Below, piece by piece: positions 38,269 to 64,000 of a stretch of 64,000 nucleotides of DNA. A program made the translations under genes and the position numbers. Below the pieces are notes generated by a model. That model was given only the letters and a program-made list of their open reading frames with translations. It had not been told where the DNA came from and ran no database searches. This stretch comes from Alphaproteobacteria bacterium (GTDB taxonomy: Bacteria > Pseudomonadota > Alphaproteobacteria > Sphingomonadales > Sphingomonadaceae). Positions within the stretch are counted from its first letter, which is position 1. The number at the start of each line of letters is the position of its first letter. Location of the stretch: positions 62,001-126,000 of the forward strand of contig JAGWWF010000006.1 of assembly GCA_018970445.1 (NCBI GenBank), in the 5' to 3' direction.

Positions 38269-39273
38269 TCAGCGGCGCACGTCGTGCTGGCCGGCCAGGA
38301 AGGCATCGATGTCGCGCTGGCCGAACAGGCTGGCATCGCCGGGCAGATAATGTTTCAGCCCGGCCAGCGCCAGCCCGGTGCGGGCGGCGTGGGCCAGATC
38401 AGCCTGGGCCAGATCACCCTGCAACAGCCCGTGCAGCACGCCCGCGGCAAAGGCGTCGCCGGCACCGATGCGATCGACAATGCTGGCCAGCGTGATGGCA
38501 TCGGCCACGCCATGGCCGTCGCGCGCATCGATCCGGGCCGACAGGGCGTGGCTGTCGGCCGCGTGGACGGTGCGCGCCGTGGCCGCGACCAGGCGCAGGC
38601 GCGGGAAGGCGGCAAAGGCGGCCTGCGCGGCGGCCGGCTGGCGATCATCCCCGGCAAAATCGCGGCCCAGGATCAGGCCGATATCCTGATGATTGCCGAA
38701 CAATATGTCGGCATGGGCGACCAGGCGGGACAGGATGGCGGGCGGGTCGCTGGCCCAGGCCTGCCACAGATGGCTGCGATAATTGCCGTCGAACGACACC
38801 GCGATGCCCAGGGCGGTGGCGGCCTGTGCGGCGGCCAGCGCCAGATCGGCCGATTGCGGCCCCAGCGCCGGGGTGATGCCCGACAGGTGCAGCCGGGTGG
38901 CGCCGGCCAGCAGGCGCGGCCAGTCAAAGGCGCTGGCCGGGGCCAGGGCAAAGCTGCTGCCGGCGCGATCATAGATGATTTCGGCGGCGCGCAGGCCGGC
39001 CCCCGGCGACAGGAAATACAGGCCCATGCGCCCCGGCAGGGTGATCACCGCGCTTTCAACGCCGCTGGCGCGCAGGGCGGCCACGGCGCCCGCCCCCAGC
39101 GCATTGTCGGGCACGGCGCTGATCATGCGGGTGGCGTGGCCCAGCCGGGCCAGGCCGATGGCGACATTGGCTTCGGCCCCGCCGACATGCACATCCAGCG
39201 ACGGCTGTTGCAGCAGCAGGCCGCGCCCCGGCGCCGAAAGCCGGATCAGCAATTCCCCGAAACACACGATCAT
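38269..39273 (-). CDS. kdgK: PfkB-family sugar kinase, probable 2-dehydro-3-deoxygluconokinase
   Basis: 334-residue ribokinase-family kinase. The N-terminus reads MIVCFGELLIRLSAPG, then HVGGAEANVAIGLARLG (substrate-binding) and near the end DRIGAGDAFAAGVLHG (catalytic Asp in GAGD). The pattern and neighbours fit KDG kinase, which makes 2-keto-3-deoxy-6-phosphogluconate. The start is ATG 39273, for which GGGGGG lies 7 nt upstream; the ATG at 39279 would place the same sequence only 1 nt away. Divergent from two LacI genes. Confidence 0.82.
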   Translation of the reverse strand: MIVCFGELLIRLSAPGRGLLLQQPSLDVHVGGAEANVAIGLARLGHATRMISAVPDNALGAGAVAALRASGVESAVITLPGRMGLYFLSPGAGLRAAEIIYDRAGSSFALAPASAFDWPRLLAGATRLHLSGITPALGPQSADLALAAAQAATALGIAVSFDGNYRSHLWQAWASDPPAILSRLVAHADILFGNHQDIGLILGRDFAGDDRQPAAAQAAFAAFPRLRLVAATARTVHAADSHALSARIDARDGHGVADAITLASIVDRIGAGDAFAAGVLHGLLQGDLAQADLAHAARTGLALAGLKHYLPGDASLFGQRDIDAFLAGQHDVRR

Positions 39274-39423
39274 GCCCATTCCCCCCGGCGCAGTTGCGGC
39301 CATCTTGCAGTGCGGCGCGCGCCATGGCCATAGTGGCGGGATCGCAACAGGGCAATTTGCAGGAGATGGGATTGGAGCGTGAAGCCGCCCGCGCGGCGCG
39401 GATGGGCCGGTGGAGCCGCCGCC

Positions 39424-40446
39424 ATGGCTGATGCCGATCGCATCGGGCTGGTGCGGCTGCGCGATGTGGCGCGGGCGCTGGGCGTTTCGGTGTCCACCGT
39501 GTCGCGCGCCCTGTCGCAGCCGCATCTGGTGTCGCAGGAAACGCTGGAACGGGTGAACGCCATGGCGACGCGCATGCGCTATCGCCCCAATCTGGCGGCG
39601 CGCGATCTGCGCACCCGCAGCACGCGATCGCTGCTGGTGGCGGTGCCCAGTTTCAGCCCGCTGTTCCTGGAAATCTTTCGCGGGGCCGAGCTGGAGGCGG
39701 CGGCGCATGGCTATGGCGTGCTGATGGCCCACACCGGCAGCGACGCCACGCGCGAGCACATGTTTCTGGATCAGGTGCTCAGCCAGCGCGCCGATGGCCT
39801 GGTGCTGGTGACGACGATGGACCCGGCCCGGCTGGCCGATCGCCGCAAGAGCTTCCCGGCGATGGTGACGGCGCTGGACAGCGGCGGCGTCGCCGGCGTG
39901 CCCTGCCGGCAGATCGACAATGCCGCCGGTGCGGCTGCCGCCGTGGCGCATCTGGTGGCGCTGGGCCACCGCCGCATCGCCCATATCGGCGGCCCGCCCG
40001 AACAGTCGCTGGCCCGCGCCCGCGCGCGCGGCTTTGCCGATGCGGTGGCGGCGGCCGGGCTGGTGGCGGCGCATTGCCCGTGCCTTGCCGGCGAATTCAG
40101 CCTGGCCAGCGGCGAGGCGCTGATGACCCGGCTGCTCACCCGCTATCCGCGGCCCACGGCGGTGTTTGCCGCCAACGACGAGATGGCGGTGGGCGCCATG
40201 CAGGCGATCAAGCGCGACGGCCTGCGCATCGGGCAGGATATTTCGGTGATCGGCTTTGATGATCTGCGCATCGGGCTGCTTTATGATCCGCCGCTCACCA
40301 CCATGGGGTTCGACAAAGTGCAGCTGGGCCGGCTGGCGATTGCCGCGCTGATCGCCGGGTTGAACGGGCGTGCGGCCGTGGCCGATGCCAGCCTGCCCGT
40401 CACGCTGGAGGTGCGCGCCACCACCGGCCCGCCGGCAGGGGAATGA
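39424..40446 (+). CDS. LacI-family transcriptional regulator 1
   Basis: 340 residues. The HTH is VRLRDVARALGVSVSTVSRAL with hinge YRPNLAARDLR; the periplasmic-binding-like effector domain follows (LLVAVPSFSPLFLEIFRGAE, RRIAHIGGPPEQS, FAANDEMAVGAM, ISVIGFDDLRIG). ATG 39424 has GGTGGAG 7 nt upstream. It is paralogous to the next gene and may control the kdgK-like gene and the operators found further right. Effector unknown, probably a sugar or sugar acid. Confidence 0.9.
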   Translation: MADADRIGLVRLRDVARALGVSVSTVSRALSQPHLVSQETLERVNAMATRMRYRPNLAARDLRTRSTRSLLVAVPSFSPLFLEIFRGAELEAAAHGYGVLMAHTGSDATREHMFLDQVLSQRADGLVLVTTMDPARLADRRKSFPAMVTALDSGGVAGVPCRQIDNAAGAAAAVAHLVALGHRRIAHIGGPPEQSLARARARGFADAVAAAGLVAAHCPCLAGEFSLASGEALMTRLLTRYPRPTAVFAANDEMAVGAMQAIKRDGLRIGQDISVIGFDDLRIGLLYDPPLTTMGFDKVQLGRLAIAALIAGLNGRAAVADASLPVTLEVRATTGPPAGE

Positions 40447-40450
40447 GGCG

Positions 40451-41479
40451 ATGATGCGCAAGCCGACAGCGACGATCCATGATGTGGCGCGGGTGGCCGG
40501 CCTGTCGATCGCCACCGTGTCACGCGCCTTCAACAATCCCGAACTGCTCAGCGCCGAGGCGCGCAGCGCCATCGATTCGGCGGTGGCGGTGCTGAATTAC
40601 CGCCCGCATGTCGCCGCCCGCCGGCTGCGCGGCAGCCGCACCAACCTGATCCTGGTGGTGGTGCCCAGCCTCAACCCCTATTTCCTTGACATATTTGCCG
40701 GGGCCGAAGCGGCGGCGCGGGCGGCCGGCTATGGCGTGCTGGTGGGCCACAGCGAACGCGATCCGGCGCGCGAACGGGATTTTGTCGAACAGGTCGCCGC
40801 CGGCCGCGCCGATGGCCTGATCCTGGTGACAACCGTGGGCGGCCATGATGCCGATGAACTGCGCCGGATGCCGCCCACCGTGATCGCGCTGGACGTGAGC
40901 GAGGACAGCGACCTGCCCAAGGTGCAGATCGATCATGTGCGCGCCGCCGAAATGATCACCCATTATCTGATCGATCAGGGCCATGCCCGCATCGCCCATA
41001 TATTGGGCGCGGCCGGTTCCAGCCTGACGGTGCATCGCCGCGATGGCTTTGTGCGCGCCCTGGCCCAGCGCGGTGTCGCCTTTGATCCGGCGCTGTGCCT
41101 GCCCGGTGATTTCACTGCCGAGGGCGGGGCGGCCGCGGCGGCTGCAATCGTCGCCATGGCCGAGCCGCCAACCGCGGTTTTTGCCGCCAATGATCAGACC
41201 GCGATCGGCGCGATGAGCCAGTTCCGCAGCCAGGGCTGGCGGGTGCCCGACGATATTTCGGTGGTGGGTTTCGATGATGGCCGGCTGGCGGCGATCGCCA
41301 CGCCGGCGCTGTCCACCGTGCACGTGCCCACCTGGCAGATCGGCTTTCGCGCCATTGAACAATTGCTGCTTTTGCTGGCATCCCAGCCGATTGAGCGCGA
41401 CATCACGCTGGAGGCCGAAGTGGTGGTGCGCCGATCGGCCGGGCCACCGCGCCGGCATCCGCCCGGCCAGCCGGCCTGA
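40451..41479 (+). CDS. LacI-family transcriptional regulator 2
   Basis: 342 residues. HTH ATIHDVARVAGLSIATVSRAF, hinge YRPHVAARRLR, then the effector domain (LILVVVPSLNPYFLDIFAGA, ARIAHILGAAGSS, FAANDQTAIGAM, ISVVGFDDGRLA). It starts 4 nt after regulator 1; ATG 40451 or 40454. The two regulators share long stretches (VPSxxPxFLxIF, RADGLxLVTT) and arose by tandem duplication. Confidence 0.9.
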   Translation: MMRKPTATIHDVARVAGLSIATVSRAFNNPELLSAEARSAIDSAVAVLNYRPHVAARRLRGSRTNLILVVVPSLNPYFLDIFAGAEAAARAAGYGVLVGHSERDPARERDFVEQVAAGRADGLILVTTVGGHDADELRRMPPTVIALDVSEDSDLPKVQIDHVRAAEMITHYLIDQGHARIAHILGAAGSSLTVHRRDGFVRALAQRGVAFDPALCLPGDFTAEGGAAAAAAIVAMAEPPTAVFAANDQTAIGAMSQFRSQGWRVPDDISVVGFDDGRLAAIATPALSTVHVPTWQIGFRAIEQLLLLLASQPIERDITLEAEVVVRRSAGPPRRHPPGQPA

Positions 41480-41605: not shown

Positions 41606-42649
41606 ATGAAACGCAAGATCGGTCTTGCCCTGGCGTCGGGGCTGGCATTGGCGGTTGCGGCCTGTTCGCCCGCTGGCGACAACACGCCGGCGCCGCCGGC
41701 CGCAAGCGCGGCCGCCACCGGCGTGGAGCGGCTGGATCCGGCGCTGGATGCGCTGATCGCGCCCGATGCGGTGCCGGTGAAGATCGCCGATGGCTTCCGC
41801 TTTGTCGAAGGCCCGCTGTGGGTGGACGGCCGGCTGCGCTTTTCCGATCTGATGGACAACAAGCTGTATGAACTGGCCGAGGGCACGGAACCCAAGCTGA
41901 TCATGGACAAGTCGGGCGGGCTGGATCAGATGGCGCCCGACAGTTTCCAGGGATCCAACGGCCAGATCGTCGATGCCGATGGCGGCGTGCTGATGATGCA
42001 GCATGGCGCCCGCCGCATCGTGAAACTGGATGCCGCGCTGAAGCTGACGCCCTATCTGGACAAGGTTGATGGCAAGCGGCTGAACAGCCCCAACGACATG
42101 GCCTTTGCCCCCGATGGCGCGCTGTGGTTCACCGATCCGCCCTATGGCCTGGTGGGCCAGGACAAGGACCCGGCCAAGGAAATGCCCTACAACGCCGTCT
42201 ATCGCCACGCCGGTGGCAAGACGGTGGCGGTGATCACCGATCTGCCCCGCCCCAACGGCATCGGCTTTTCGCCCGACGGCAAGAAGCTCTATATCTCCAA
42301 TTGCGAGCCGGAGATGTTCGTGAACGTCTATGACGTCAACGCCGATGGCACGGTGGCCAACGGCCGGCGCTTCATTTCCTATCCCGGCCCCAATCCCATC
42401 GATGTGCCCGATGGCCTGAAGGTGGACAGCGCCGGCAATGTGTGGACATCGGGCCCCGGCGGCATCCGCATCATCAGCCCGGATGGCAAGGTGCTGGGCC
42501 AGATCAAGACGCCGGATCGCGCCCAGTCAAACCTGGTGTGGGGCGGGCCCGATCTGAAGACCGCCTATATCATGAGCGCCGGGGCGGTGTACAAATTGCC
42601 CACGCTGGTCGCCGGCCAGACCCCGCTCTATCCCAGGGCCGCGAAATGA
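41606..42649 (+). CDS. SMP-30/gluconolactonase family lipoprotein
   Basis: 347-residue six-bladed propeller lactonase. The N-terminus MKRKIGLALASGLALAVAAC is a lipoprotein signal with lipobox VAAC. Core motifs: FVEGPLWVDGRLRFSD, LNSPNDMAFAPDGALWFTDP (metal site), RPNGIGFSPDGKKLYISN and VPDGLKVDSAGNVW. It would hydrolyse sugar lactones produced by PQQ dehydrogenases. ATG 41606 is favoured over GTG 41600 because of the AAGGGAAGAG upstream. First gene of an operon running to about 46031. Confidence 0.9.
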   Translation: MKRKIGLALASGLALAVAACSPAGDNTPAPPAASAAATGVERLDPALDALIAPDAVPVKIADGFRFVEGPLWVDGRLRFSDLMDNKLYELAEGTEPKLIMDKSGGLDQMAPDSFQGSNGQIVDADGGVLMMQHGARRIVKLDAALKLTPYLDKVDGKRLNSPNDMAFAPDGALWFTDPPYGLVGQDKDPAKEMPYNAVYRHAGGKTVAVITDLPRPNGIGFSPDGKKLYISNCEPEMFVNVYDVNADGTVANGRRFISYPGPNPIDVPDGLKVDSAGNVWTSGPGGIRIISPDGKVLGQIKTPDRAQSNLVWGGPDLKTAYIMSAGAVYKLPTLVAGQTPLYPRAAK

Positions 42650-43065
42650 GCGGGGACGGCATCGGCCGGCGCGAGGCGCTGGCGGCCATGGCCGGTGCAG
42701 CGGCAGCGGCAGCGGCCACGCCGGCCGCTGCGGCCAAGGCCAAGTCCAGGCCCATCCTGCTCTATTGCGATCTCAAGGTCGATCCGGCGCGCGAGGCGGA
42801 AATGCTGGAGCATTTCCACACCCGCTTCAAGCCGGCCGGGGCCAAGTTCAAGGGCTTCATCGATCTCAAGATGCTGAAACTGCGCACGCTGATCCAGGGC
42901 GATGCGCTGCCGCCGGGCGTGAATTACCGGTTCCAGCTGACCTATGAGAGCGAGGAACTGCGCCAGATCTGGATCAAGTCGGACGTGCATCAGGCGGTGT
43001 GGCCGGGGATCGAGAACACGCTGATCGACAAGAATTTCCACGTCTCCCTGTTTGACGTGGCGTGA
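42646..43065 (+). CDS. Tat-exported Dabb/ABM-fold protein of unknown function
   Basis: 139 residues. GRREALAAMAGAAAAAAA is a Tat-like signal. The mature part starts RPILLYCDLKVDPAREAEML and ends HVSLFDVA, with one alpha-beta pattern like dimeric alpha/beta-barrel (antibiotic monooxygenase-like) proteins, but no catalytic residues that I recognise. Its ATG overlaps the lactonase stop by 4 nt. Confidence 0.75.
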   Translation: MSGDGIGRREALAAMAGAAAAAAATPAAAAKAKSRPILLYCDLKVDPAREAEMLEHFHTRFKPAGAKFKGFIDLKMLKLRTLIQGDALPPGVNYRFQLTYESEELRQIWIKSDVHQAVWPGIENTLIDKNFHVSLFDVA

Positions 43066-44051
43066 TGGGCCGGCTGGGCCTGGTGGCCGTGCTGGCCGGC
43101 CTGCTGCCGGCGCTGGCGCAGGCGCAGGTGCTGCCGCCGGTGGGCGCGGCCGAACGCCCGGTGCCGCGCGAAAGCGAATCCAACGCCGTCACCGGCATCG
43201 TGCCCGAACGCTTCATCGGCGATGCCGCGCTGTCGCCGCCGCGCATCATCGGCAATGCCATGCTGGTGCGCACCATCCTGGGCAAGGGCGATCCGGCCCA
43301 GCCGGGCTGGCCGGGCGCGCTGCTGGTGCACAAGAGCGAGATTGTCGCTGCCAGCCTGGAGGCCGGCGAGGCAACCAGCCCGATGCAGCGGCCCGAACAG
43401 CTGATCGGCTATGTGAAGGCCGGTGAAGGCACGCTGGATGATGGCGGGCAACGCTGGCCGCTGCGCCCCGGCCATGCCTTTCTGATTCCCGCCGGCCTGG
43501 CCCATCGCATCAGCGCCGGGGCCAATGGCGCGTTGCAGATGACCATCCTGTCTGGCCCACCGCAGGCCGGGGCCACCCCCAGCCCGGTGATCCTGGTGCG
43601 CGATACGGCGAAGCTGCTGTATGTTGAGCAGGGCGCGCACTGGGTGAATCTGTCGAAGGCGCCGTTTCGCGACGTGGGCGAACGCTTCCTGCTGGTGACG
43701 ATGGCACCGATGACGATTGCCGGCGCCCACGCCCATGTGCCCGGCACCGAAGAAGCCTGGGTGAAGCTGACCCCGGCGCCGGCGCTGTTGCAGGTGGGCA
43801 GCGAGATCCGCGAATGGAAACAGGATCAGGGCTTTGTGGTGCCGCCCAACGGCCGCACCGTGCATGCCGCCATCAACCATTCCAGCCAGCGCCAGACCTG
43901 GTTCTATTTTTCCACCATGCCGCGCCCGGCCGGCCCGCCGCGGGTGGCCGCGCCGGTGGATCCGGCCTTTGCGCAGGCGGTGCAGGCCGCCACCATCGCG
44001 CCCGAACCGCTGATCGCGCCGCCCGCGCCGCGCCGCCCGGCCCGGCCATGA
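43065..44051 (+). CDS. Exported double-cupin protein
   Basis: 328 residues with a signal peptide (GLVAVLAGLLPALAQAQ) and two cupin domains. The first has LIGYVKAGEGTLDDGGQ and LIPAGLAHRIS; the second has AGAHAHVPGTEEAWVKL with His, His and Glu metal ligands, and VPPNGRTVHAAIN. ATG 43065 shares one base with the preceding stop; GTG 43062 is also possible. The second cupin resembles the conserved cupin of the four-cupin protein at 51028-52656. Could be a sugar-acid isomerase or epimerase. Confidence 0.8.
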   Translation: MGRLGLVAVLAGLLPALAQAQVLPPVGAAERPVPRESESNAVTGIVPERFIGDAALSPPRIIGNAMLVRTILGKGDPAQPGWPGALLVHKSEIVAASLEAGEATSPMQRPEQLIGYVKAGEGTLDDGGQRWPLRPGHAFLIPAGLAHRISAGANGALQMTILSGPPQAGATPSPVILVRDTAKLLYVEQGAHWVNLSKAPFRDVGERFLLVTMAPMTIAGAHAHVPGTEEAWVKLTPAPALLQVGSEIREWKQDQGFVVPPNGRTVHAAINHSSQRQTWFYFSTMPRPAGPPRVAAPVDPAFAQAVQAATIAPEPLIAPPAPRRPARP

Positions 44052-44436: not shown

Positions 44437-45525
44437 ATGACGGACATCGACAGGCGCAAATTCTTTGCCGCAGGCGCGGCGGCCGGCGCGGCGGCCAGTG
44501 CCGGCATAGCCCTGCCGGCGGCGGCGGCCACCGGCCCGGCGGCGCGTGCCCCCGGCCATGGCGGCCCCGGCCTGGCCGATTTGTGGGGGCAGGATTTCCT
44601 GTATCAATGGAGCCCGCCGGCCGATTACAAGCGCAACCTGACCGCGGGGCCGCGCACCATCCGGCTGAGCAGCCAGTCCACCCCGCGCCTCACGGGCGCG
44701 GAGGGCACCGATTATGGCGCGCTGTTCAAGGGCATGCGCGATGGCGGCTGGAGCGCCTGTGAAGCCGCGTCGGCCGCCTGGCTGGAACGCAAGCGGCCCG
44801 ACAGCGAGGTGCGCGAGATCAAGGCGCAGCTGGTGGCCAACGACATTCATTTCTATGGCATCCATTGTGCCGGCAACATCATCGCGCCCGATCCCGGTGC
44901 AGATCGCTGGCAGCGCCACATCATCACCGCCATCCACGCCGCCGAGGAAATGGGCTGCGAGCTGATCCTGACCCACGCCGGCAGCATGTGGCCCAACCGC
45001 AACTGGGCCCATCCGCAGAACTGGAGCCGCGAGGCCTGGATGCGCACCGTGGGCGCGCTGAAGCGCATCTGCAAGGAAACCGCCGGCAGCAAGGTGGCCA
45101 TCGCCATCGAGGCGGTGAACACCGAAAGCGTGAACAACCCCTGGGCGCACAAGCGGCTGCGCGAGGATGTGGGCGATGAACGCATCAGCGTGGGGCTGGA
45201 CATCACCAACATGGTGTTCCCCAATGTCGCCTTCCGCATGAGCGAGATGCTGGATCAGACCTTTGATCTGCTGGAAGATCAGATCGTCTATGTCCACGCC
45301 AAGGATTTTGCCTGGAACGACATGCTGCCCGGCATGAACTGGACGATGAACGGCACCGGCAACATGGATTATGAACTGTTTCTGGCCCGGTTGAGCCGGT
45401 TGAAGCGCAACCCCTACATGCTGGTGGAATTCCTGACCACCAACGACGAATACCAGCAGGCCCAGCGCAACATCCGGTCGATTGCCGGCAAGCTGGGCGT
45501 GAAGATCCACGGCACCCAGCCCTGA
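44437..45525 (+). CDS. Tat-exported TIM-barrel sugar phosphate isomerase/epimerase-like protein
   Basis: 362 residues. DRRKFFAAGAAAGAAASAG is a Tat signal. The mature part is an AP-endonuclease-2-type TIM barrel: YGIHCAGNIIAPDP, CELILTHAGSMWP, AIAIEAVNTES (metal Glu), GLDITNMVF (metal Asp), VYVHAKDFAW (His/Lys) and PYMLVEFLTTNDE (Glu). The usual name sugar phosphate isomerase/epimerase implies cytoplasm; the Tat signal puts this one in the periplasm. GGAGGGGGGACGGC precedes the ATG. Confidence 0.85.
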   Translation: MTDIDRRKFFAAGAAAGAAASAGIALPAAAATGPAARAPGHGGPGLADLWGQDFLYQWSPPADYKRNLTAGPRTIRLSSQSTPRLTGAEGTDYGALFKGMRDGGWSACEAASAAWLERKRPDSEVREIKAQLVANDIHFYGIHCAGNIIAPDPGADRWQRHIITAIHAAEEMGCELILTHAGSMWPNRNWAHPQNWSREAWMRTVGALKRICKETAGSKVAIAIEAVNTESVNNPWAHKRLREDVGDERISVGLDITNMVFPNVAFRMSEMLDQTFDLLEDQIVYVHAKDFAWNDMLPGMNWTMNGTGNMDYELFLARLSRLKRNPYMLVEFLTTNDEYQQAQRNIRSIAGKLGVKIHGTQP

Positions 45526-45536
45526 AGGAGGCACTG

Positions 45537-46031
45537 ATGCGGACATTCATCCTGGCAGCGGCGCTGGCCCTGATCCCGGTTTCGGCGCTGGCGGCGGATC
45601 TGTCCGGCACCTGGGTGCGCGATGCCGCGCTCAGCAAGCCGGCGCCCTATCCCAATTACTGGCTCACCCGCGCCGCGCCGGGCATGGGCGGCAACCAGAA
45701 CCAGATCTTCGTGATGCGCATCACCCAGACCGCCGCCGACGTGACGGTGAGCGACCCGCTGCACAATCTGCGCACCCTGGTGCTGGACGGCAAGCCGCAC
45801 GTGACCCGCACCGATACCGGCATGGCCGATCTGACCACCACCGCCGCCCTGGCCGGCGCGGGGCTGACCGTGACCAGCGTGCAGCCCTATGGCGGCATGC
45901 CGGGCAATGTGACGATGACCGCGACCGAGAACTGGGCGCTGTCGGCCGATGGCAAGCATCTGACCATCACCACGGTGCGGGTGCTGCCGGCCACCACCCA
46001 GACCCATGTCGAGGTGTTTGCCCGGCAGTGA
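45537..46031 (+). CDS. Secreted protein of unknown function
   Basis: 164 residues with signal peptide MRTFILAAALALIPVSALAA and a mature beta-rich protein (DLSGTWVRDAALSKP start, WALSADGKHLTITTVRVLP near the end), lipocalin-like in feel. I recognise no family. Last gene of the operon starting at the lactonase, 11 nt after the TIM-barrel gene. Confidence 0.75.
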   Translation: MRTFILAAALALIPVSALAADLSGTWVRDAALSKPAPYPNYWLTRAAPGMGGNQNQIFVMRITQTAADVTVSDPLHNLRTLVLDGKPHVTRTDTGMADLTTTAALAGAGLTVTSVQPYGGMPGNVTMTATENWALSADGKHLTITTVRVLPATTQTHVEVFARQ

Positions 46032-53738: not shown

Positions 53739-53774
53739 CCTGCCCCCCATGCCACCGGCATTGATCGGCCGGCA

Positions 53775-53788: not shown

Positions 53789-54008
53789 TGTTTGCGGCGT
53801 GTTTGCAAGCGCCGGCTGCGGCTGTGGCCGTCGCGCAACAATGACAGACCGATGACGATTGCCGCTTTGCGACCTTGCGTTTCGGGCCAAGCATGGGCAG
53901 TATCCCCTTGCGAACAGGGGGCCTGCCGGCTCCGCGCGCACTTATTGGCGATGATTCAGCGTTGCGCACAGCGGGCCGCAGAAGCCCGGGGATCGCGGGA
54001 TCAGCAAC

Positions 54009-57031: not shown

Positions 57032-57946
57032 ATGGACAGGCGGCTGTTTCTGGCCGGTGCGGGGGCGGCGCTGCTGGCCGGTGGCCGGGCTGCCGCGCAA
57101 GCGGCCGGCATCCCGCCCGAACTGCGGGCGCGGCTGGCGGTGAGCAGCTCCACCTGGCGCGCCCATTATGATGGCCGCTTCAGCCAGGCCGGCGCGCTGC
57201 CCCGCCTGTCACACCGCAGCCTGCCGGCGCATGTCAGGCAGCGCCACGGCCTGTCCCGCATCGAGCTGTGGGATCAGCAGTTCGGCCCGGCCGGCCACAG
57301 CTTTGCCGAATGCCGGGCCATCCGCGCTGCGGCCGATGCCGCCGGCGTGCAGATCGCCAGTGTCGAGGTGGAGGACATGCCGCCGCTGGACGCCGCCGAT
57401 GCCGATGATCGCGCCCAGGCGGTGGCCGAAGGCCGGGTGTGGCTGGAAAAGGCGCGGGTGCTGGGCTGCACGTCGATGCGATTCAACGTCAACCGCAGCC
57501 GCACAGAGGCCATCAACCGCGATGCCGCGGTGGCGGTGCTGCGCCGGCTGGCCGATCATGGCGGCAAACTGGGCGTGGTGGTGCTGCTGGAAAATCACGG
57601 CGGCGCCACCGCCACCATCGCCGCCATGGCGGATCTGGTGCGCGCGGTGAACCACCCCTTTGTGAAGGCGGAGCCGGATTGGGGCGCCTGGGCCCCGCCC
57701 GGTGACCGCTATGCGGCGATGGCGGCCGCCATGCCGCTGGCCCATATCGTGTCGGCCAAGGGCCAGTTGTTCGATCCCGACACCTATGCCCACAGCAGTT
57801 ACGATGTGGCGCGGCTGGTGCGCGAGGCCGAAGCCGGCGGCTATCGCGGGGTCTATTCCATCGAACTCTACAACAACCCCGCCCCGGCCGATACCGATCG
57901 GGCGGTGGACTGGATGATCCGCACCATCGCGGCCGAACTGCGCTGA
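57032..57946 (+). CDS. Tat-exported TIM-barrel epimerase/isomerase-like protein 2
   Basis: 304 residues. MDRRLFLAGAGAALLAGGRA is a Tat signal. The mature TIM barrel has SRIELWDQQFGPAGHSFAEC, GVVVLLENHGGATATIA (metal Glu), VKAEPDWGAWAPPGDRYA (Asp) and YRGVYSIELYNNP (Glu). Distinct from the exported TIM barrel at 44437. ATG 57032 has GGAGGT 6 nt upstream; ATG 57020 is less likely. Stop adjacent to the convergent hydrolase stop. Confidence 0.83.
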   Translation: MDRRLFLAGAGAALLAGGRAAAQAAGIPPELRARLAVSSSTWRAHYDGRFSQAGALPRLSHRSLPAHVRQRHGLSRIELWDQQFGPAGHSFAECRAIRAAADAAGVQIASVEVEDMPPLDAADADDRAQAVAEGRVWLEKARVLGCTSMRFNVNRSRTEAINRDAAVAVLRRLADHGGKLGVVVLLENHGGATATIAAMADLVRAVNHPFVKAEPDWGAWAPPGDRYAAMAAAMPLAHIVSAKGQLFDPDTYAHSSYDVARLVREAEAGGYRGVYSIELYNNPAPADTDRAVDWMIRTIAAELR

Positions 57947-58924
57947 TCAGGCCGGGCCGGCCAGCGGCGGCAGGGTCAGGAAGCTGTGCATCACGTGCAG
58001 GATGCGGTGGCGGTTGCGGCCCAGCACGGCGATATGGGCAACGCCGTCGAGAATCGCGAACTGGCGATCAGGCGATGGCAGCCGGCCAAAGAAATCCAGC
58101 AGATCGGCCTCGGTCGCATTGCCGTCGTGGATGGCGCGGGTCATCAGCACCGGCATGGTGAGTTTGGCCGGATCGACCAGCGGCATTTTCGTCGCCATGT
58201 CGAGATAGGTGCCGTTGGGGATGCGGTTGCCCAGCGCCAGTTCATAGCGCGCCAGCGCCGCCGGCACCGCCGGATCGAAGCTGGTGGGATCATCGCGGCT
58301 GAAGATGCCGACATAGGTCGCCTCGCTGGCCGGGCGGGTGGGGTTGGCGCGCAGATTGGCCACATTGGCGCGGCGGCGGGCGATTTCGGGGGCATCATTG
58401 CCGGTGTGGGTGAAGCCATCCAGGATCAGCCGGCTGATGCGGCCGGGCTGGCGCATCGCCAGCAGCCCGGCGCGCAGGGCCCCCGATGACTGGCCATAGA
58501 CCATGGGCGCGGCCACCCCGGTTTCGCGTTCGACCAGCGCAAAGGCCGCCGCCAGATCATCGGCGCCCGATGCAATGTCGGAAAAGCCGCCGGTGCGGGT
58601 GGAGCGGCCATAGGATTCATGATCCATCGTCCACACATCGAAGCCGGCCCGGGCAAACCAGTCCATCATCGAATAATCCTGGCCCGGCACCTGCAGATCA
58701 TAGCCGCCGCGCCCGGAAAAGCTGGACCCATGCACCAGGAACAGCAGCGGCTGCGGCCCCGTCGCCTGCGCCTGCCGCTTGCGATAGAGATAGAGCCGCA
58801 CATCGCCCTTGCTGGCCCAATATTCGCTGGCAATGATCCGCGGGGCGGCGGCCGCCGCCGGGGCGCTGCCCAGCAGCATGGCGGCCGTGGCGGCGGCGCC
58901 GAGGGATTCACGACGGGTCAGCAT
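57947..58924 (-). CDS. Tat-exported alpha/beta hydrolase
   Basis: 325 residues. MLTRRESLGAAATAAMLLGS is a Tat signal. Motifs: LFLVHGSSFSGRGG (oxyanion), VYGQSSGALRAGLLA (nucleophile), RAIHDGNATE (acid) and LDGVAHIAVLG (His). The substrate is unknown; a sugar ester or lactone is plausible from context. AAAGGA precedes the ATG. Last gene of the six-gene operon starting at the MFS carrier. Confidence 0.85.
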   Translation of the reverse strand: MLTRRESLGAAATAAMLLGSAPAAAAAPRIIASEYWASKGDVRLYLYRKRQAQATGPQPLLFLVHGSSFSGRGGYDLQVPGQDYSMMDWFARAGFDVWTMDHESYGRSTRTGGFSDIASGADDLAAAFALVERETGVAAPMVYGQSSGALRAGLLAMRQPGRISRLILDGFTHTGNDAPEIARRRANVANLRANPTRPASEATYVGIFSRDDPTSFDPAVPAALARYELALGNRIPNGTYLDMATKMPLVDPAKLTMPVLMTRAIHDGNATEADLLDFFGRLPSPDRQFAILDGVAHIAVLGRNRHRILHVMHSFLTLPPLAGPA

Positions 58925-58947: not shown

Positions 58948-60006
58948 TCAGCGGCAGTGGCGCTCGCTGCCGCCGGTGCGCTGGTTGGCAAAGGTGAAAC
59001 AGGCATCGCGCGACACGCTGATCAGCAGATTCTGGTTGCCGAAGCGATCGATGTTGACGATGCGGTCGGGCTGCGTGTCGGCCGCCGGGCTGCGGGTGGC
59101 GGCGTGCAGCTGCCAGACGCGCGCGCCGGGCACCGCCTTGTAGCGGTTCAGCACGTCGGCATCGCCGCCCTTGGTCGGGCCATTGTTCACCACCACCAGG
59201 CGCGGCGCGATGCTGGCCACCAGCGCCGGCGGATTCGAGACGCCGCTGCCGTGATTGTCGGCAAACATCAGATCAACGCTGCCCACCCGATTCACCGGGC
59301 ACACCAGCCGATATTCCAGCGCCCAGGTGGCATCGCCCAGGCTGAGGATGCGGGCCTTGCCCCAGCGCAGCAGCAGGCCCAGCGAGCGGGGGTTTTCCTC
59401 GCCGCCATTGTCGTCCATGTCGGTCGGCCCGCTGCACCCGCTGCCCGGCGCCCCGCTGCCCGGCAGGGCGCGCGGCGCGAACTGGCCATCGCTGTGCACC
59501 GCGATCAGTTCCAGCCCGTCGATCCTCAGCCGTTCCCCGGCCGCCATCACGCGCTGTTTCAGCCCCTGTTTGGCCTGCACATAGAGCGGCCAGATGGTTT
59601 CCGGCGAGATCGGGATTTTCTCCCTGGGCAGATCGGGGGTGACAAACTCGCGGTTGGGGCCATGATCGATCAGTTCGCCAACGGGCATCAACTTCACCAG
59701 ATCATTCAGGCCGCCGATATGATCGATGTGATAATGGGTGATCAGCAGATGATCGATCCGCGTCAGCCCGGCGGCGCGCGCCGCGGCCACGATGCGTTCG
59801 GCGCTGGAGGGGCTGGGTGGCACCGGCGGCCCGCCCGGCTGGGCGCGCGGCCCGCCGCGCCCGGCCGGCCAGCCGGTATCGATCAGCAGGGATCGGCCGC
59901 TGGGCGTGATGTACAGCGTGGCGGCCCCGCCATCGACATCGATGCTGATGATCTTCAGATCGACGGCCGGGGCGGCGGCGGCAAGCAGCAGGGCGGCCGC
60001 GATCAT
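58948..60006 (-). CDS. Exported metallo-beta-lactamase fold hydrolase
   Basis: 352 residues with a short signal (MIAAALLLAAAAPAV). The MBL metal motif is LLITHYHIDHIGGLND (HxHxDH), with further ligands in SLGDAT and FADNHGSG. The layout is like the ComEC/Rec2-type competence hydrolase group, but here it is stand-alone and exported. ATG overlaps the GalM stop by 4 nt. Confidence 0.85.
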   Translation of the reverse strand: MIAAALLLAAAAPAVDLKIISIDVDGGAATLYITPSGRSLLIDTGWPAGRGGPRAQPGGPPVPPSPSSAERIVAAARAAGLTRIDHLLITHYHIDHIGGLNDLVKLMPVGELIDHGPNREFVTPDLPREKIPISPETIWPLYVQAKQGLKQRVMAAGERLRIDGLELIAVHSDGQFAPRALPGSGAPGSGCSGPTDMDDNGGEENPRSLGLLLRWGKARILSLGDATWALEYRLVCPVNRVGSVDLMFADNHGSGVSNPPALVASIAPRLVVVNNGPTKGGDADVLNRYKAVPGARVWQLHAATRSPAADTQPDRIVNIDRFGNQNLLISVSRDACFTFANQRTGGSERHCR

Positions 60007-61130
60007 TTCACCACCCCAAAGGCAAAGACGGTGGTGGAGGTGAAGACCTGGCCTGGATCGAGCCGGGTGGACGGGAAGGCCGGCTGGTTGGGGCTGTCGG
60101 GCGCGTGCTGGGTTTCCAGCGCGATGCCGTCGCCCTGGCGCAGCAGGCGGTTGTCGCCGGCCAGCTGGCTGCCGTTGAAATTGTTGGCGGTGAAGACCTG
60201 CACGCCCGGTTCGGTGGTGGAGACCAGCAGGCGGCGGCCCGACGCGGGATCGATCAGCTCGGCCGCAGGGCGCAGGCTGCCGGCGGGGCCGTCGATGATG
60301 AAATTATGGTCCAGCCCGCGCGCCAGCAGCAATTGCGGATGCGGGGTGCGCAGGGCCGGGCCGATCGGGCGCAGGGTGCGAAAATCGAACGGCGTGCCGG
60401 CCACCGCGGCCAGTTCACCGGTTGGGATCATCCTGTCGGTCACCGGGGTGAACTGGCTGGCGAACAGGTGCAGGTGATGGCCATCGATGGGCCCGCTGCC
60501 ATGGCCGGCCAGATTGAAATAGCTGTGGTTGGTGACATTGATGTGGGTGGGCCTGGTGGTGGTGGCCCGCCAGTCCAGCCGCAGTTCGCCGGCATCGTTC
60601 AGGCTGTAGGTGGCCGTCACATGCACGGCGCCGGGAAAGCCATTGTCGCCATCCGGGCTGTCGAGGCTGAGTTCGACCCCGCTGGGCAGCAGGCGCGGCG
60701 TCCACAATTTCGTGCCCCAGCCGCCGCCGGTCTGGCTTTGGCCGCCGTGGATGGTGATGCCGGTTTCCGGGTTGGCCGGCAGTGCAAAGCGCTGGCCATC
60801 GATGCTGAAGCCGCCCCCGGCAATGCGGTTGGCATAACGGCCGATCAGCGTGTTGAACGAACCGCCGCGATCCCAGCCGGCAAAATCCGGCCGGGTGAGC
60901 ACGACATTGGCGAGCCGGCCCTGGCTATCGGGCACCCACAGCTGCGCCAGCGCGCCGCCGCGGGTGAGGATCACCACCTTCATGCCCTGGGCGTTGGCCA
61001 GCGTGATCGCCTCGACCACCTCCCCCCTGGCGTTGGTGCCGAACGGGGCGATGCTGGCGGTGGCGGCCAGCGCCGGGGATGCAATCAGGCTCATGATTAT
61101 GCCTTGGGCAACAAGTATAGCCTTGATCAT
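60003..61130 (-). CDS. galM: Periplasmic aldose 1-epimerase
   Basis: 375-residue galactose mutarotase. Signal segment GIIMSLIASPALAA. Motifs: NTLIGRYANRIAGGGFSIDG, GITIHGG, VTNHSYFNLAGHG (catalytic His), LARGLDHNFI and GIALETQHAPDSPN (catalytic Glu). It interconverts alpha and beta anomers of aldoses. Its position before the PQQ aldose dehydrogenase suggests it feeds the correct anomer to that enzyme. Overlaps both neighbours by 4 nt. Confidence 0.93.
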   Translation of the reverse strand: MIKAILVAQGIIMSLIASPALAATASIAPFGTNARGEVVEAITLANAQGMKVVILTRGGALAQLWVPDSQGRLANVVLTRPDFAGWDRGGSFNTLIGRYANRIAGGGFSIDGQRFALPANPETGITIHGGQSQTGGGWGTKLWTPRLLPSGVELSLDSPDGDNGFPGAVHVTATYSLNDAGELRLDWRATTTRPTHINVTNHSYFNLAGHGSGPIDGHHLHLFASQFTPVTDRMIPTGELAAVAGTPFDFRTLRPIGPALRTPHPQLLLARGLDHNFIIDGPAGSLRPAAELIDPASGRRLLVSTTEPGVQVFTANNFNGSQLAGDNRLLRQGDGIALETQHAPDSPNQPAFPSTRLDPGQVFTSTTVFAFGVVK

Positions 61131-62662
61131 GGCAGTGGCTCCAGCCGGACAACAAGGCCAGGCGTGGCGGCCGACAGCGGCTGGCCGGTGCCCTGCCCGG
61201 TGGGCTGCTGCACCAGCACGACGATATGGCCCTGCGCGTCGGTGGCCAGCGCGCGCACCCGGCCATAGGCGTTGAACAATATTTCCTGCCGGGTGATGCG
61301 GGGGCCGGCCAGCACCAGCCGGCGCAGCTGCTGGCCCGACAGCGCCGCCACGAACAGATTGCCGCGCCAGCCCGGATAGCGGTTGCCGCGATAGACCATG
61401 ATGCCCGACGGCGCGATGGTGGGGGTGTAATAGGCGACGGGGCCGATCATGCCGGGGGCCGCCCGCGCCGAAATACCCGGCTGGATGCCCATCGAAACGA
61501 CGCCCCAGCCATAATTGCCGCCGGCGCGGATCAGGTTGATTTCATCGCCGCCGCTGGGGCCATGTTCGGCCTCCCACAGATTGCCGGCAGCATCATGGGC
61601 CAGCCCCTGCGGGTTGCGATGGCCGTAACTGAGGATGGATGGCACCGCGCCGGGCCGGTTCAGGAAGGGATTGTCGGCCGGGATGCTGCCATCGCGGTTG
61701 ATGCGGTGCAGCTTGCCCAGCGGGGTTGCCAGATCCTGCGCATTGGCCATGTCGCCGCGTTCGCCGATCGAAAACAGCAGCCGGCCCTGGGCATCAAAGG
61801 CCAGCCGGCTGCCATAATGCACGCCGCTGGGCGTGTAGCGATCGGGGGGGCTGCGAAACAGCGTCTGCTGATCCACCCACTGGCCGGCTGCATTGATGCG
61901 GCCGCGCACGATGATCGTCATCGATGGATGGTTGGGGGGGCGCTCCCCCGGTTTCAGCACCGGGGGCGGCGGCAGCTGATATCCGGGTTTGAGTTCGACC
62001 AGGCTGAGATAGACCCAGCCGGTGCGGGCATAATCGGGATCGATCGCCACATCCATCAGCCCGGCATCCTGGCGTTCCCACACCGCCGGCGTGCCGCTGA
62101 TGGTGGCCATGGCGCCATCGCTGGCGATCCGGCGCAGGCGGCCGGGTCGTTCCGTCACCAGCAGGCCGCCATCGGGCAGGGCGGCGATGCCCCACGGCGT
62201 GTCCAGCCCGCGCGCCACCACCTTCAGGCGGAATTTCTGTGCCTGGGATGTGATCACCGCGCCATCAGGATCGGCGATGAAGGCCGGGCGCGGGCGGGCG
62301 CTGTCGGCTTCCAGCCGGATCCAGGCGATCAGCTGCCAGATCTGGGCATCGGGCAGCAGCTCGGCAAAGGCCGGCATTTCCGCCCCGCTGATGCCGGCCT
62401 TGATGATGCGGAACAAATCCTCGTCGCTGCGCGCCGACAAAAGCCGTGAATCGAACAGATTGGGGGCGCGGCCCACCGTGCCCGGCGTGCCGTGGCAGCC
62501 GCTGCAATTGTCGGTGAAGCGCTGGCCGGTCTGCCGCTGCAATTCGCGGCCGCCGCCAAACCCGGCCGCATTGGGCGCGGGCGGCGCACTGGGCGCGGGC
62601 GCCTGGGCCAGCAACAGCCCGGCGGCCAGCGCCAGCGCGGCAGCAAGGCCGAAGCGGCTCAT
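61127..62662 (-). CDS. PQQ-dependent aldose sugar dehydrogenase fused to cytochrome c
   Basis: 511 residues. Signal peptide MSRFGLAAALALAAGLLLAQ, then a cytochrome c domain with DNCSGCHGTPG and MPAFAELLPD (axial Met), then the soluble-GDH/YliI six-bladed propeller: LDTPWGIAALPDGGLLVTER, TPSGVHYGSRLAFD (catalytic His), SYGHRNPQGLAHD and EHGPSGGDEINLI. It would oxidise aldoses and pass electrons to its own heme. ATG 62662 overlaps the SDR stop by 4 nt. Confidence 0.92.
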   Translation of the reverse strand: MSRFGLAAALALAAGLLLAQAPAPSAPPAPNAAGFGGGRELQRQTGQRFTDNCSGCHGTPGTVGRAPNLFDSRLLSARSDEDLFRIIKAGISGAEMPAFAELLPDAQIWQLIAWIRLEADSARPRPAFIADPDGAVITSQAQKFRLKVVARGLDTPWGIAALPDGGLLVTERPGRLRRIASDGAMATISGTPAVWERQDAGLMDVAIDPDYARTGWVYLSLVELKPGYQLPPPPVLKPGERPPNHPSMTIIVRGRINAAGQWVDQQTLFRSPPDRYTPSGVHYGSRLAFDAQGRLLFSIGERGDMANAQDLATPLGKLHRINRDGSIPADNPFLNRPGAVPSILSYGHRNPQGLAHDAAGNLWEAEHGPSGGDEINLIRAGGNYGWGVVSMGIQPGISARAAPGMIGPVAYYTPTIAPSGIMVYRGNRYPGWRGNLFVAALSGQQLRRLVLAGPRITRQEILFNAYGRVRALATDAQGHIVVLVQQPTGQGTGQPLSAATPGLVVRLEPLP

Positions 62663-63414
62663 TTTGCCGTCCAGCCGCCGTCGATCAAGATGTCGGTGCC
62701 GGTGACAAAGCCGGCGAGATCGGCACACAGATAGGTGACGAGCGCGCCGATTTCCGCCGTCTGGCCCCAGCGGCCCACCGGCAGGCTGGCCAGAAAGGCG
62801 GCGTTGGCCACCGGATCATCCATCACCGCCCGGTTCATCGGCGTGCCGAACGGGCCGGGGCTGATGGCGTTGACGGTGATGCCCTCGTCGGCCAGTTCCA
62901 GCGCCAGCGATTTGGTCAGGCCCAGCAGGCTGGCCTTGGCCGCCGAATAGGCGGTGCGGCCGGGCAGCGAGATATGGGCCATGATCGAGGCCAGGTTGAT
63001 GATCCGGCCATAGCCCGAACCCATCATGCCGGGCACAAAGCCATGGCAGGCCAGAAAGGTGGAGATCAGGCTGGAATCGATCACGCTGCGAAATTCGGCC
63101 AGGCTGAAATCCACCAGCGGCTTCCGGATGTTGGTGCCGGCCGAATTGATCAAGATCTGCGGATTGGGCGACCAGGCGTTCACCGCCGCCACCAGCGCGG
63201 CCACGCTGGCCTCGTCGGTCATCTCGGCGGTGAAGGCGGTGGCCTCCACCCCGCTGGCGGCCAGCCGGGCGGCCAGTGCCTCCAGCGCCTCGGCCCGGCG
63301 GCCCACCAGCGCCAGTTTCGCGCCGGCCGCGCCCAGCGCTTCGGCCATCGCCTCGCCCAGGCCGCCGCTGGCGCCAATGATCACCGCGGTGCGGCCAGTG
63401 AGCGAAACCTGCAT
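62659..63414 (-). CDS. SDR family oxidoreductase (gluconate 5-dehydrogenase-like)
   Basis: 251-residue classical short-chain dehydrogenase. Cofactor motif IGASGGLGEAM, NAG-like NSAGTN, catalytic Ser in NLASIMAHIS and Tyr/Lys in YSAAKASLLG, ending ILIDGGWTAK. It fits gluconate 5-dehydrogenases and related sugar-acid oxidoreductases. No signal peptide: cytoplasmic, acting on the acid imported by the adjacent MFS carrier. Confidence 0.9.
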   Translation of the reverse strand: MQVSLTGRTAVIIGASGGLGEAMAEALGAAGAKLALVGRRAEALEALAARLAASGVEATAFTAEMTDEASVAALVAAVNAWSPNPQILINSAGTNIRKPLVDFSLAEFRSVIDSSLISTFLACHGFVPGMMGSGYGRIINLASIMAHISLPGRTAYSAAKASLLGLTKSLALELADEGITVNAISPGPFGTPMNRAVMDDPVANAAFLASLPVGRWGQTAEIGALVTYLCADLAGFVTGTDILIDGGWTAK

Positions 63415-63418
63415 CAGT

Positions 63419-64000
63419 TCATCCTTTCGCCGCAGCCGGCGCGGTGGCGCCAGCGCCCATCACCACCCAGCTGGCCGCGCCAACGCACGCCACCCCGGCC
63501 ATCAGCCACAGCATCGGTGTCCAGTCGTTGCCGGTGGCTTCCAGCAGCAGGCCGCCGACCACCGGGGCCAGAAAGCCGGAAAAATTGGCGAACATGTTCA
63601 TGGCAGCGCCCATGGTGGCGGTATAGCCTTGGCCCAGTTCCACGCATTGATTCCAGCTGATCGGCACCAGCATGTCGCCCATGAAGGCCGCCGCGGCCAG
63701 CAGGCCGATCGCCACCCAGGCATTGCCGGCCTGCGGCACCAGCGCCATCAGCACGGCCACCGAAACGAAACTGGTGATCGCCACCAGCCGGCGCGGCACC
63801 CACAAGGGCAGCAGCCCGGCGGTGAGCGAACCCAGCCCGCCCATCAGCAGCGGCAGCACCGACAGGCCGGCCATGCCCGCCGCGCTTTGCCCGTGCACTT
63901 CGCCCAGATAGGTCGGCAGCCAGGTGACAAAGAAATACCAGACATAGGACCAGCAGAAATACTGCAGGCACAGCAGCAGCGCCTGGGGCCGCAGCAGCAG
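63419..64000 (-). CDS. MFS transporter, truncated by the window edge
   Basis: C-terminal half of a major facilitator running off the right edge; about 193 codons are visible. The frame includes YFFVTWLPTYLGEV, GLSVLPLLMGGLGSLTAGLL, NMFANFSGFLAPVVGG and WLMAGVACVGAASWVVMG. It resembles ACS-type sugar-acid carriers. Apparently first gene seen of the operon with SDR, PQQ dehydrogenase and GalM. Confidence 0.85.
   Translation of the reverse strand: MLLRPQALLLCLQYFCWSYVWYFFVTWLPTYLGEVHGQSAAGMAGLSVLPLLMGGLGSLTAGLLPLWVPRRLVAITSFVSVAVLMALVPQAGNAWVAIGLLAAAAFMGDMLVPISWNQCVELGQGYTATMGAAMNMFANFSGFLAPVVGGLLLEATGNDWTPMLWLMAGVACVGAASWVVMGAGATAPAAAKG

What the first reader, a model, noticed from the sequence alone, without database searches (positions are those of the whole stretch)
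38269..64000. LacI-linked locus that appears to oxidise sugars mostly in the periplasm
About fourteen exported proteins cluster here: lactonase lipoprotein, two PQQ dehydrogenases, cytochrome c, aldose epimerase, two Tat-exported TIM barrels, multi-cupin proteins, a DUF4861-like protein, an MBL hydrolase and an alpha/beta hydrolase. They sit with one TonB receptor, two MFS sugar-acid carriers and cytoplasmic KDG/KDGal kinases. The set is consistent with oxidation, delactonisation and isomerisation outside the cytoplasm before import of the acid. The known parts are PQQ oxidation and lactonases; the exported TIM barrels, cupins and DUF4861 in one system are not something I can place in a described pathway.
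Basis: partly seen in the sequence, partly recalled or inferred. Interest (0 to 1): 0.72.

Follow-up and report, generated by a model that had tools for sequence, protein, structure and literature searches.

The report
Two neighbouring periplasmic sugar-oxidation gene clusters
The stretch holds two adjacent sets of genes that appear to oxidise sugars outside the bacterial cytoplasm before importing the resulting acid; one set is a rare, patchily distributed cluster built around an uncharacterised exported enzyme that may carry out a step normally done inside the cell.

Summary
The inventory is right apart from one label: 14 exported proteins, one TonB receptor, two galactonate-type MFS carriers and KDG/KDGal kinases are present; the "DUF4861-like" protein matches no Pfam or NCBIfam family at E 0.001.

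The locus is two units. Module A (38269-57946) recurs around a Tat-exported TIM barrel (TIM1) and a lipocalin-like exported partner, adjacent in 9 of 10 related loci. PQQ dehydrogenase and DgoK recur in 7 of 10, RraA-like protein, MFS and DgoA in 6, SMP-30 and tandem cupin in 5. A LacI-type palindrome recurs at its promoters in three close genomes. Module B (57947 to beyond 64000) is separable: not beside module A in G875, on another contig in G708, with its own GntR regulator.

Best reading: module A oxidises a sugar, probably galacto-configured, in the periplasm and feeds the KDGal branch. It encodes no recognised sugar-acid dehydratase, and four related MAGs have no IlvD-type one, so TIM1 or RraA may do the 3-deoxy step. 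All substrates and reactions are inferred. The own genome lacks pqqC, so PQQ would have to come from outside.

The parts
38269..39273 (-). PfkB-family KDG/KDGal-type kinase
   Evidence: PF00294; best NCBIfam matches are a KDPG aldolase/kinase fusion and KDG/KDGal kinases, all below cut-off; start
39424..40446 (+). LacI-family regulator 1
   Evidence: sequence read by eye, not scanned; homologues in G875 74% and G708 49%
40454..41479 (+). LacI-family regulator 2
   Evidence: PF00356 and Peripla_BP families
41606..42649 (+). SMP-30/gluconolactonase lipoprotein
   Evidence: PF08450, lipobox VAAC
42646..43065 (+). small Tat-exported protein of unknown family
   Evidence: no NCBIfam match (not scanned against Pfam), GRREAL signal
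43062..44051 (+). exported cupin protein
   Evidence: PF07883
44119..44397 (+). exported mono-haem cytochrome c (CSGCH)
   Evidence: NF052246 31.5 bits, below cut-off 93; CxxCH
44437..45525 (+). TIM1: Tat-exported xylose-isomerase-like TIM barrel, marker gene of module A
   Evidence: PF01261; DRRKFF signal; ten relatives at 61-93% identity; fold
45537..46031 (+). exported lipocalin/FABP-like small protein, next to TIM1 in 9 of 10 related loci (tenth contig ends inside TIM1)
   Evidence: no convincing Pfam family
46055..47320 (-). MFS1, galactonate-type acid carrier
   Evidence: PF07690; TIGR00893 287 bits, cut-off 395
47330..48001 (-). RraA-like protein
   Evidence: PF03737; PDB 3noj, 4-carboxy-4-hydroxy-2-oxoadipate aldolase, E 1.6e-24; start
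48137..49060 (+). DgoK, 2-dehydro-3-deoxygalactonokinase family
   Evidence: PF05035, 302.6 bits
49091..49110 (.). palindrome TGATGAAATCGATATCATCA, LacI-type operator candidate upstream of the PQQ dehydrogenase
49162..51012 (+). soluble PQQ dehydrogenase without the membrane domain (start uncertain)
   Evidence: PF01011; TIGR03074 matched from profile position 153 only; HHDMWDAD and NLYGNS present
51028..52656 (-). exported tandem-cupin protein
   Evidence: PF07883, PF02311
52668..53738 (-).
   Evidence: start
53774..53789 (.). second operator-like palindrome, between the preceding gene and the TonB receptor
54059..56938 (+). TonB-dependent receptor
   Evidence: PF00593, PF07715; best solved matches BtuB, residues 49-221 of the query
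57032..57946 (+). TIM2: second Tat-exported TIM barrel; end of module A
   Evidence: PF01261; 4ovx E 2.3e-19; synteny
57947..58924 (-). Tat-exported alpha/beta hydrolase; module B begins
   Evidence: PF12146, TRRESL signal
58948..60006 (-). exported MBL-fold hydrolase; lactonase role is a guess
   Evidence: PF00753
60003..61130 (-). exported aldose 1-epimerase
   Evidence: PF01263; TIGR02636 252.1 bits, cut-off 397.65
61127..62662 (-). exported cytochrome c fused to a soluble glucose/sorbosone quinoprotein dehydrogenase
   Evidence: PF07995, PF13442; PDB 7cdy E 3.9e-58
62659..63414 (-). short-chain dehydrogenase SDR1
   Evidence: PF13561
63419..64000 (-). MFS2, 3' part; module B continues outside the window (L001) with the rest of MFS2, two SDRs, FAH hydrolase, GntR regulator and IlvD-type dehydratase
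   Evidence: MFS2 TIGR00893 219.5 bits; FAH NF053535 421.9 bits, cut-off 500; IlvD NF009560 960.3 bits, over its cut-off; L001 ORFs; GntR and SDR3 read by eye

Best explanation
Two adjacent catabolic modules. Module A (38269-57946, LacI-linked): a sugar or small glycoside enters through the TonB receptor. In the periplasm the PQQ dehydrogenase oxidises it and passes electrons on, perhaps to the small cytochrome c. The SMP-30 lipoprotein opens the lactone. The exported TIM1 enzyme, with its lipocalin-like partner, acts on the carbon next to the new carbonyl, either epimerising it or expelling the group beside it; the cupins may isomerise. The acid enters through MFS1 and joins the 2-keto-3-deoxy-galactonate branch (RraA-like protein, DgoK, a KDPGal-type aldolase) to give pyruvate and glyceraldehyde-3-phosphate. 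I favour TIM1 (or else RraA) as supplier of the 3-deoxy step, because no recognised sugar-acid dehydratase belongs to the module. Module B (57947 onward, GntR-linked): mutarotase, cytochrome c-GSDH and a lactonase make an aldonate in the periplasm; MFS2 imports it; IlvD dehydratase, an SDR and the FAH hydrolase cleave it to pyruvate plus a hydroxy-acid. Shown here: gene content, export signals by heuristic, co-conservation, separability, candidate operators. Inferred: all substrates, reactions and the order of steps.
For: Co-conservation in 10 related loci (9 plus G708): lipocalin-like partner beside TIM1 in 9 of 10 (L019's contig ends inside TIM1), PQQ dehydrogenase 7 of 10 (39-92% identity), DgoK 7 of 10, RraA at 83-95% 6 of 10, MFS1 at 67% or more 6 of 10, DgoA 6 of 10 (query taken from one of them, L015), TonB receptor 5, SMP-30 5, tandem cupin 5, cupin 1 4, the unlabelled Tat protein 4, TIM2 4. 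TIM1 and the RraA orthologue fall in the same 2 of 397 family genomes. Operator palindromes upstream of the PQQ dehydrogenase and at the TonB-receptor promoter in window, G874 and G875. KDGal kinase and aldolase families point to KDGal. IlvD/Edd-family genes: in G875 (2 of 2), G876 (1 of 1), G877 (1 of 1) and G881 (2 of 2) each is DHAD or Edd, as are the 2 in G000 outside module B. Module B on a separate contig in G708.
Against: No substrate or activity is tested. TIM1 model confidence is modest (pLDDT 65) and its best fold matches are ketose 3-epimerases, which favours epimerisation over elimination. The own genome and G874 do have an IlvD-type dehydratase, the one in module B, which could serve both modules. 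G708 and G880 have four IlvD/Edd-family genes each that I did not name, nor those of G878, G879, G882. G877 lacks DHAD, so MAG gaps are likely. Enolase-superfamily genes occur in 11 of 11 genomes; only two were named (MenC in G876, DgcA in G000), and G874, G880, G708, G878 and G879 carry strong unnamed ones. UxuA- and UxaA-type dehydratases were not searched. Loci L016, L017 and G880 lack DgoK and a close RraA in the stretch held, and G878 and G880 have no DgoK anywhere, so the KDGal endpoint is not universal. kdgK was matched in 1 of 10 loci, lacI1 in 2, lacI2 in 1. pqqC is missing from 8 of 9 genomes including the own one.
Confidence: 0.55

Rival explanations
1. Module A is a periplasmic keto-glycoside pathway: the PQQ dehydrogenase makes a 3-keto-glycoside and TIM1 epimerises or cleaves it, as in levoglucosan, OGE/CGE and LacABC systems.
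For: TIM1 fold matches include 3-keto-D-glucoside 4-epimerase YcjR, C-deglycosidase DgpB-C and 2-hydroxy-3-keto-glucal hydratase AtHYD. G880 carries an exported protein beside TIM1 that reads by eye as Gfo/Idh. Distant TIM1 relatives (about 23-25% identity over part of the protein) in Rhizobium and Shinella sit beside Gfo/Idh oxidoreductases. Published analogues: PMC10628242 (sections 7, 8), PMC10066097 and PMC9007349 (passages).
Against: No GMC or DUF1080 family appeared among the Pfam matches of the module A proteins scanned (DgoK, LacI1 and the small Tat protein were not scanned against Pfam). After the first presumed metal glutamate E225 the invariant residues are V227 and N228, where AtOGE has His134 two residues after its ligand His132. 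A lactonase and KDGal enzymes are not needed for it.
Confidence: 0.25
2. Ordinary De Ley-Doudoroff galactose oxidation: PQQ dehydrogenase and SMP-30 make galactonate, a dehydratase encoded elsewhere makes KDGal, and TIM1, the cupins and the lipocalin are accessory.
For: DgoK, DgoA and galactonate-type MFS. Expression of DgoKAD allowed slow growth of P. putida on galactose (PMC6927180, passages). The own genome and G874 carry the module B IlvD dehydratase, and unnamed enolase-superfamily genes exist in every genome searched.
Against: TIM1 and its partner are the most constant pair, present also where DgoK is absent; no IlvD-type sugar-acid dehydratase in G875, G876, G877, G881.
Confidence: 0.25
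3. One single pathway across modules A and B.
For: Both modules are contiguous in the window and in G874.
Against: Nothing of module B was matched in about 16.7 kb after TIM2 in G875, and in G708 its relatives lie on another contig. It has a GntR regulator and no operator match within 2 mismatches.
Confidence: 0.1

Closest known systems
De Ley-Doudoroff galactose pathway (DgoKAD)
   Same: DgoK, DgoA-type aldolase in relatives, galactonate-type MFS, lactonase family
   Different: oxidation and lactone opening apparently exported, no DgoD matched in the cluster, exported TIM barrel plus lipocalin-like protein, cupins, RraA-like protein
Keto-glycoside elimination systems (levoglucosan LgdA/B1/B2/C; A. 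tumefaciens OGE/HYD; C-glycoside deglycosidases)
   Same: a dehydrogenase paired with xylose-isomerase-like TIM barrels that act next to a new carbonyl
   Different: here TIM1 is Tat-exported, sits with a PQQ dehydrogenase and a lipocalin-like protein, and lacks the second His of AtOGE
Caulobacter LacABC periplasmic 3-ketolactose route
   Same: periplasmic oxidation before cleavage, with sugar epimerase genes nearby (passages of PMC9007349)
   Different: no GMC or DUF1080 family matched in the proteins scanned here
Route III non-phosphorylative pathways (2,4-diketo acid hydrolase; PMC6336799, abstract)
   Same: module B has IlvD dehydratase, SDRs and an FAH hydrolase close together
   Different: first steps apparently exported (cytochrome c-GSDH fusion, mutarotase, MBL protein); substrate unknown

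Membership tests
De Ley-Doudoroff galactonate pathway | 2-dehydro-3-deoxygalactonokinase (DgoK) | tested here: met
   PF05035, 302.6 bits, window 48164-49030
De Ley-Doudoroff galactonate pathway | KDPGal aldolase beside the kinase | tested here: inconclusive
   present in 6 of 10 related loci; only 101 bases lie between dgoK and the PQQ gene in the window; two PF01081 genes elsewhere in G000
De Ley-Doudoroff galactonate pathway | galactonate dehydratase (DgoD or IlvD type) | tested here: inconclusive
   none matched in module A; IlvD/Edd genes of G875, G876, G877, G881 and of G000 outside module B are DHAD or Edd; most enolase-superfamily genes were not named
OGE/CGE beta-eliminases | xylose-isomerase-like TIM barrel with a metal site | tested here: inconclusive
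   PF01261 and fold fit; E225, D255, H287, E331 conserved, but calling them metal ligands is by analogy
OGE/CGE beta-eliminases | catalytic His two residues after the first ligand | tested here: not met
   position 227 is an invariant Val, against His132/His134 in AtOGE; read from sequence, not from aligned structures
Ketose 3-epimerases | fold and E-x-V-N ... L-D metal-site motif | tested here: inconclusive
   ranks 1 and 2 of the fold search; profile alignment to D-tagatose 3-epimerase over E-A-V-N and L-D, E 0.44, not significant
Membrane PQQ glucose/quinate dehydrogenase (TIGR03074) | N-terminal membrane domain and score over cut-off | tested here: not met
   match starts at profile position 153; 387.6 bits against 832.65
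PQQ quinoproteins | catalytic Asp and PQQ-site motifs | tested here: inconclusive
   HHDMWDAD and NLYGNS present; their meaning is recalled, not from a call
Active quinoprotein pathway | own PQQ synthesis | tested here: not met
   pqqC (TIGR02111) in 1 of 9 genomes, not in G000; it rang in 0 of 14 control genomes, so G708 is the only positive; other pqq genes not searched; import is possible (PMC12124388 abstract)
DUF4861 | match to the Pfam family | tested here: not met
   no Pfam family at E 0.001
2,4-didehydro-3-deoxy-L-rhamnonate hydrolase (module B FAH) | score above the NCBIfam equivalog cut-off | tested here: not met
   421.9 bits against 500

The most novel reading that the evidence does not exclude
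TIM1 with its lipocalin-like partner is an exported dehydratase or beta-eliminase: after PQQ oxidation it removes the C3 substituent of an aldonolactone in the periplasm, the product is opened to a 2-keto-3-deoxy acid, and that acid, not the aldonate, is what MFS1 imports. This would move the first three steps of a De Ley-Doudoroff-type pathway outside the cytoplasm and would define a new family of exported TIM-barrel enzymes with a dedicated lipocalin-like partner.
Probability: 0.2. Interest if true: 0.78.

Novelty: new variant of a known kind. Interest (0 to 1): 0.55.

Why it matters
If the reading holds, bacteria of several phyla (as far as MAG labels can be trusted) share a rare, patchily distributed gene set that does most of a sugar-acid pathway in the periplasm, with an exported TIM-barrel and lipocalin-like pair: the enzyme has no significant solved relative by sequence and the partner no convincing Pfam family. 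It gives a concrete place to look for an unassigned 3-deoxy step, and for use of scavenged PQQ in organisms without pqqC.

Tried and rejected
Quinate/shikimate reading (PQQ enzyme, dehydroshikimate-dehydratase-like TIM barrel, LigK-like RraA; a recalled idea): set aside when DgoK and DgoA proved recurrent partners. Solved-structure searches with TIM1, single and profile: nothing significant. Plasmid search with the tandem cupin: none. The 'DUF4861-like' protein was found in 1 of 196 genomes of the order sample, the own one; its Persicobacter relative (30%) has by eye no shared cluster. The Haliscomenobacter TIM2-like hit lies in a neighbourhood unlike module A, though Gfo/Idh and GMC oxidoreductase genes lie 7-10 kb away. 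Pfam on 11 lipocalin-like proteins: best E 0.038, no convincing family. A 43%-identical TIM1 relative in G879 was fetched (L045) but not analysed.

Literature: only listings were seen, and only the top rows: 6 of 6 papers; 20 of 82; 15 of 71; 4 of 4; 15 of 38; 1 of 1; 12 of 23; 0. None of the listed titles or abstract beginnings describes this cluster; the library is open-licence PMC only.

Limits of counts: the scan used one protein and reaches close relatives only. In some searches overlapping weaker hits were dropped and several loci are cut by contig ends, so misses are not proven absences. Operators: the pattern is the site itself, so its own match is by construction; the consensus was drawn from the sites, its shuffles keep single-base content only, and G874 and G875 are close relatives. 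At 3 mismatches one search also matches inside genes: one in the window, four in G875, one in G708; L014 and L020 have none; L016 and G880 were scanned only with the 20-base word (none), L017 not at all.

Full report
WHAT IS THERE. The window is C5:62001-126000 of a 3.03-Mb genome in 45 contigs; the contig runs on to 132163. The list holds except for the DUF4861 label: that protein matched no Pfam or NCBIfam family at E 0.001, and its one weak PDB match is to aldose 1-epimerase. DgoK, hidden by a spurious long ORF in my first gene list, lies at 48137-49060.

CO-CONSERVATION. TIM1 is rare: 1 of 385 genomes of the class sample at E 1e-20 and 2 of 397 of the family sample at E 1e-15, the own genome included each time. 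A scan of genome contigs with TIM1 gave 9 loci, in MAGs whose titles say Sphingomonadales (2), Caulobacterales (2), Alphaproteobacteria (1), Acidobacteriaceae or Acidobacteriia (2), Rhodanobacteraceae (1) and Cyanobacteria (1). With G708 this makes 10 related loci, the window not counted. The lipocalin-like gene is next to TIM1 in 9 of 10 (the tenth contig ends inside TIM1), PQQ dehydrogenase in the locus in 7, DgoK in 7, RraA (83-95%) and MFS1 (67% or more) in 6, DgoA in 6, TonB receptor in 5, SMP-30 in 5, tandem cupin in 5, cupin 1, the unlabelled Tat protein and TIM2 in 4 each, lacI1 in 2, kdgK and lacI2 in 1. Contig ends limit several loci. The RraA orthologue occurs in 2 of 397 family genomes, the same two as TIM1. 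L016 and G880 keep a periplasmic core (PQQ enzyme, SMP-30, tandem cupin, TIM1, partner) without DgoK or a close RraA; L017 shows TIM1-partner pairs and, by eye, an RraA-like fragment.

TWO MODULES. In G874 the order from cupin 1 to the IlvD gene is that of the window, plus a dgoA-like gene that the window lacks. In G875 nothing of module B was matched in the roughly 16.7 kb held after TIM2, and the genes read there look unrelated; its best GSDH-cytochrome relatives are weak and on other contigs. In G708 GntR, FAH, SDR3, SDR2, MFS2, SDR1, GSDH-cytochrome c and MBL relatives lie together on contig C10, whereas module A is on C14; no IlvD, aldose epimerase or alpha/beta hydrolase relative was matched in that stretch. 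So module B is separable. Upstream of it are genes I read by eye as glycolate oxidase subunits. That would fit the pyruvate-plus-glycolate route of PMC6336799 (abstract and outline seen), but was not tested.

REGULATION. The palindrome TGATGAAATCGATATCATCA lies about 50 bases upstream of the assumed PQQ dehydrogenase start; no second site within 3 mismatches exists in the window, and shuffles give none. A related palindrome lies at 53774. Both recur in the same intergenic stretches of G874 and G875, with a weaker third between RraA and dgoK; G708, L015 and L019 have weaker ones in module A intergenic stretches, L014 and L020 none; some 3-mismatch matches fall inside genes. Module B has no match within 2 mismatches in the window or L001. 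That LacI1 or LacI2 binds them is inference.

ENZYMES. TIM1 has invariant E225 and D255 and nearly invariant H287 and E331, the expected places of a metal site by analogy. Its model (mean pLDDT 65) matches ketose 3-epimerases best, with 3-keto-glucoside 4-epimerase YcjR third, C-deglycosidase DgpB-C 13th and the hydratase AtHYD 22nd, at TM-scores of about 0.5-0.57 by query. It lacks the second histidine of AtOGE. The partner's model (pLDDT 78) is a lipocalin/FABP-like barrel, six matches at E 0.001 or better. The RraA-like protein is nearest 4-carboxy-4-hydroxy-2-oxoadipate aldolase among solved structures. The PQQ enzyme lacks the membrane domain of its best NCBIfam model.

THE MISSING STEP. 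Module A ends in KDGal enzymes but no sugar-acid dehydratase was matched in it. All IlvD/Edd-family genes of G875 (2), G876 (1), G877 (1) and G881 (2) are DHAD or Edd, as are the 2 of G000 outside module B. Against this: G000 and G874 have the IlvD-type gene of module B; G877 lacks DHAD, so MAG gaps are likely; G708 and G880 have four unnamed members each; and enolase-superfamily genes occur in 11 of 11 genomes, only two of which I named, MenC and DgcA. So the 3-deoxy step may be done by TIM1 in the periplasm, by RraA in the cytosol, by the module B enzyme, or by an enzyme not looked for. I give the TIM1 version probability 0.2.

COFACTOR. pqqC was found in 1 of 9 genomes, G708, and not in the 99.99% complete own genome; the model rang in 0 of 14 control genomes. 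The quinoproteins would then depend on outside PQQ, which many Gram-negative bacteria obtain from the environment (PMC12124388, abstract and passages). The best solved matches of the locus's TonB receptor are BtuB, over residues 49-221.

PAPERS SEEN. PMC10628242: abstract, outline, sections 7 and 8. PMC9007349, PMC10066097, PMC6927180: passages. PMC6336799: abstract and outline. PMC12124388: start of abstract in a listing, and two passages. General De Ley-Doudoroff and quinoprotein biochemistry beyond these, and UxuA as a TIM-barrel dehydratase, are recalled.

Noticed in passing
window 49061-49161, compared with L012 5723-6301 and L013 14739-15314: The dgoA-like aldolase that lies between dgoK and the PQQ gene in two close relatives is missing at this place in the window; two PF01081 genes exist elsewhere in the genome.
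   Followed up: partly
whole genome G000: No pqqC although several quinoprotein genes are encoded; only 1 of 9 module-A genomes searched has pqqC.
   Followed up: partly
L041 6180-10235 and 16284-17252: In G708 module B sits beside three genes that read by eye as glycolate oxidase subunits GlcD/E/F, and a ThuA-like gene lies within it.
   Followed up: no
L006, L007, L017 and L018: TIM1 and its lipocalin-like partner occur as two pairs in one locus in three genomes (G708, L017, L018); in L017 a third TIM1 starts at the contig end.
   Followed up: no
L016 9350-9946 and L018 9481-9930: A small single cupin resembling KdgF by eye lies directly upstream of TIM1 in an Acidobacteriaceae-labelled and a Rhodanobacteraceae-labelled locus.
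   Followed up: no
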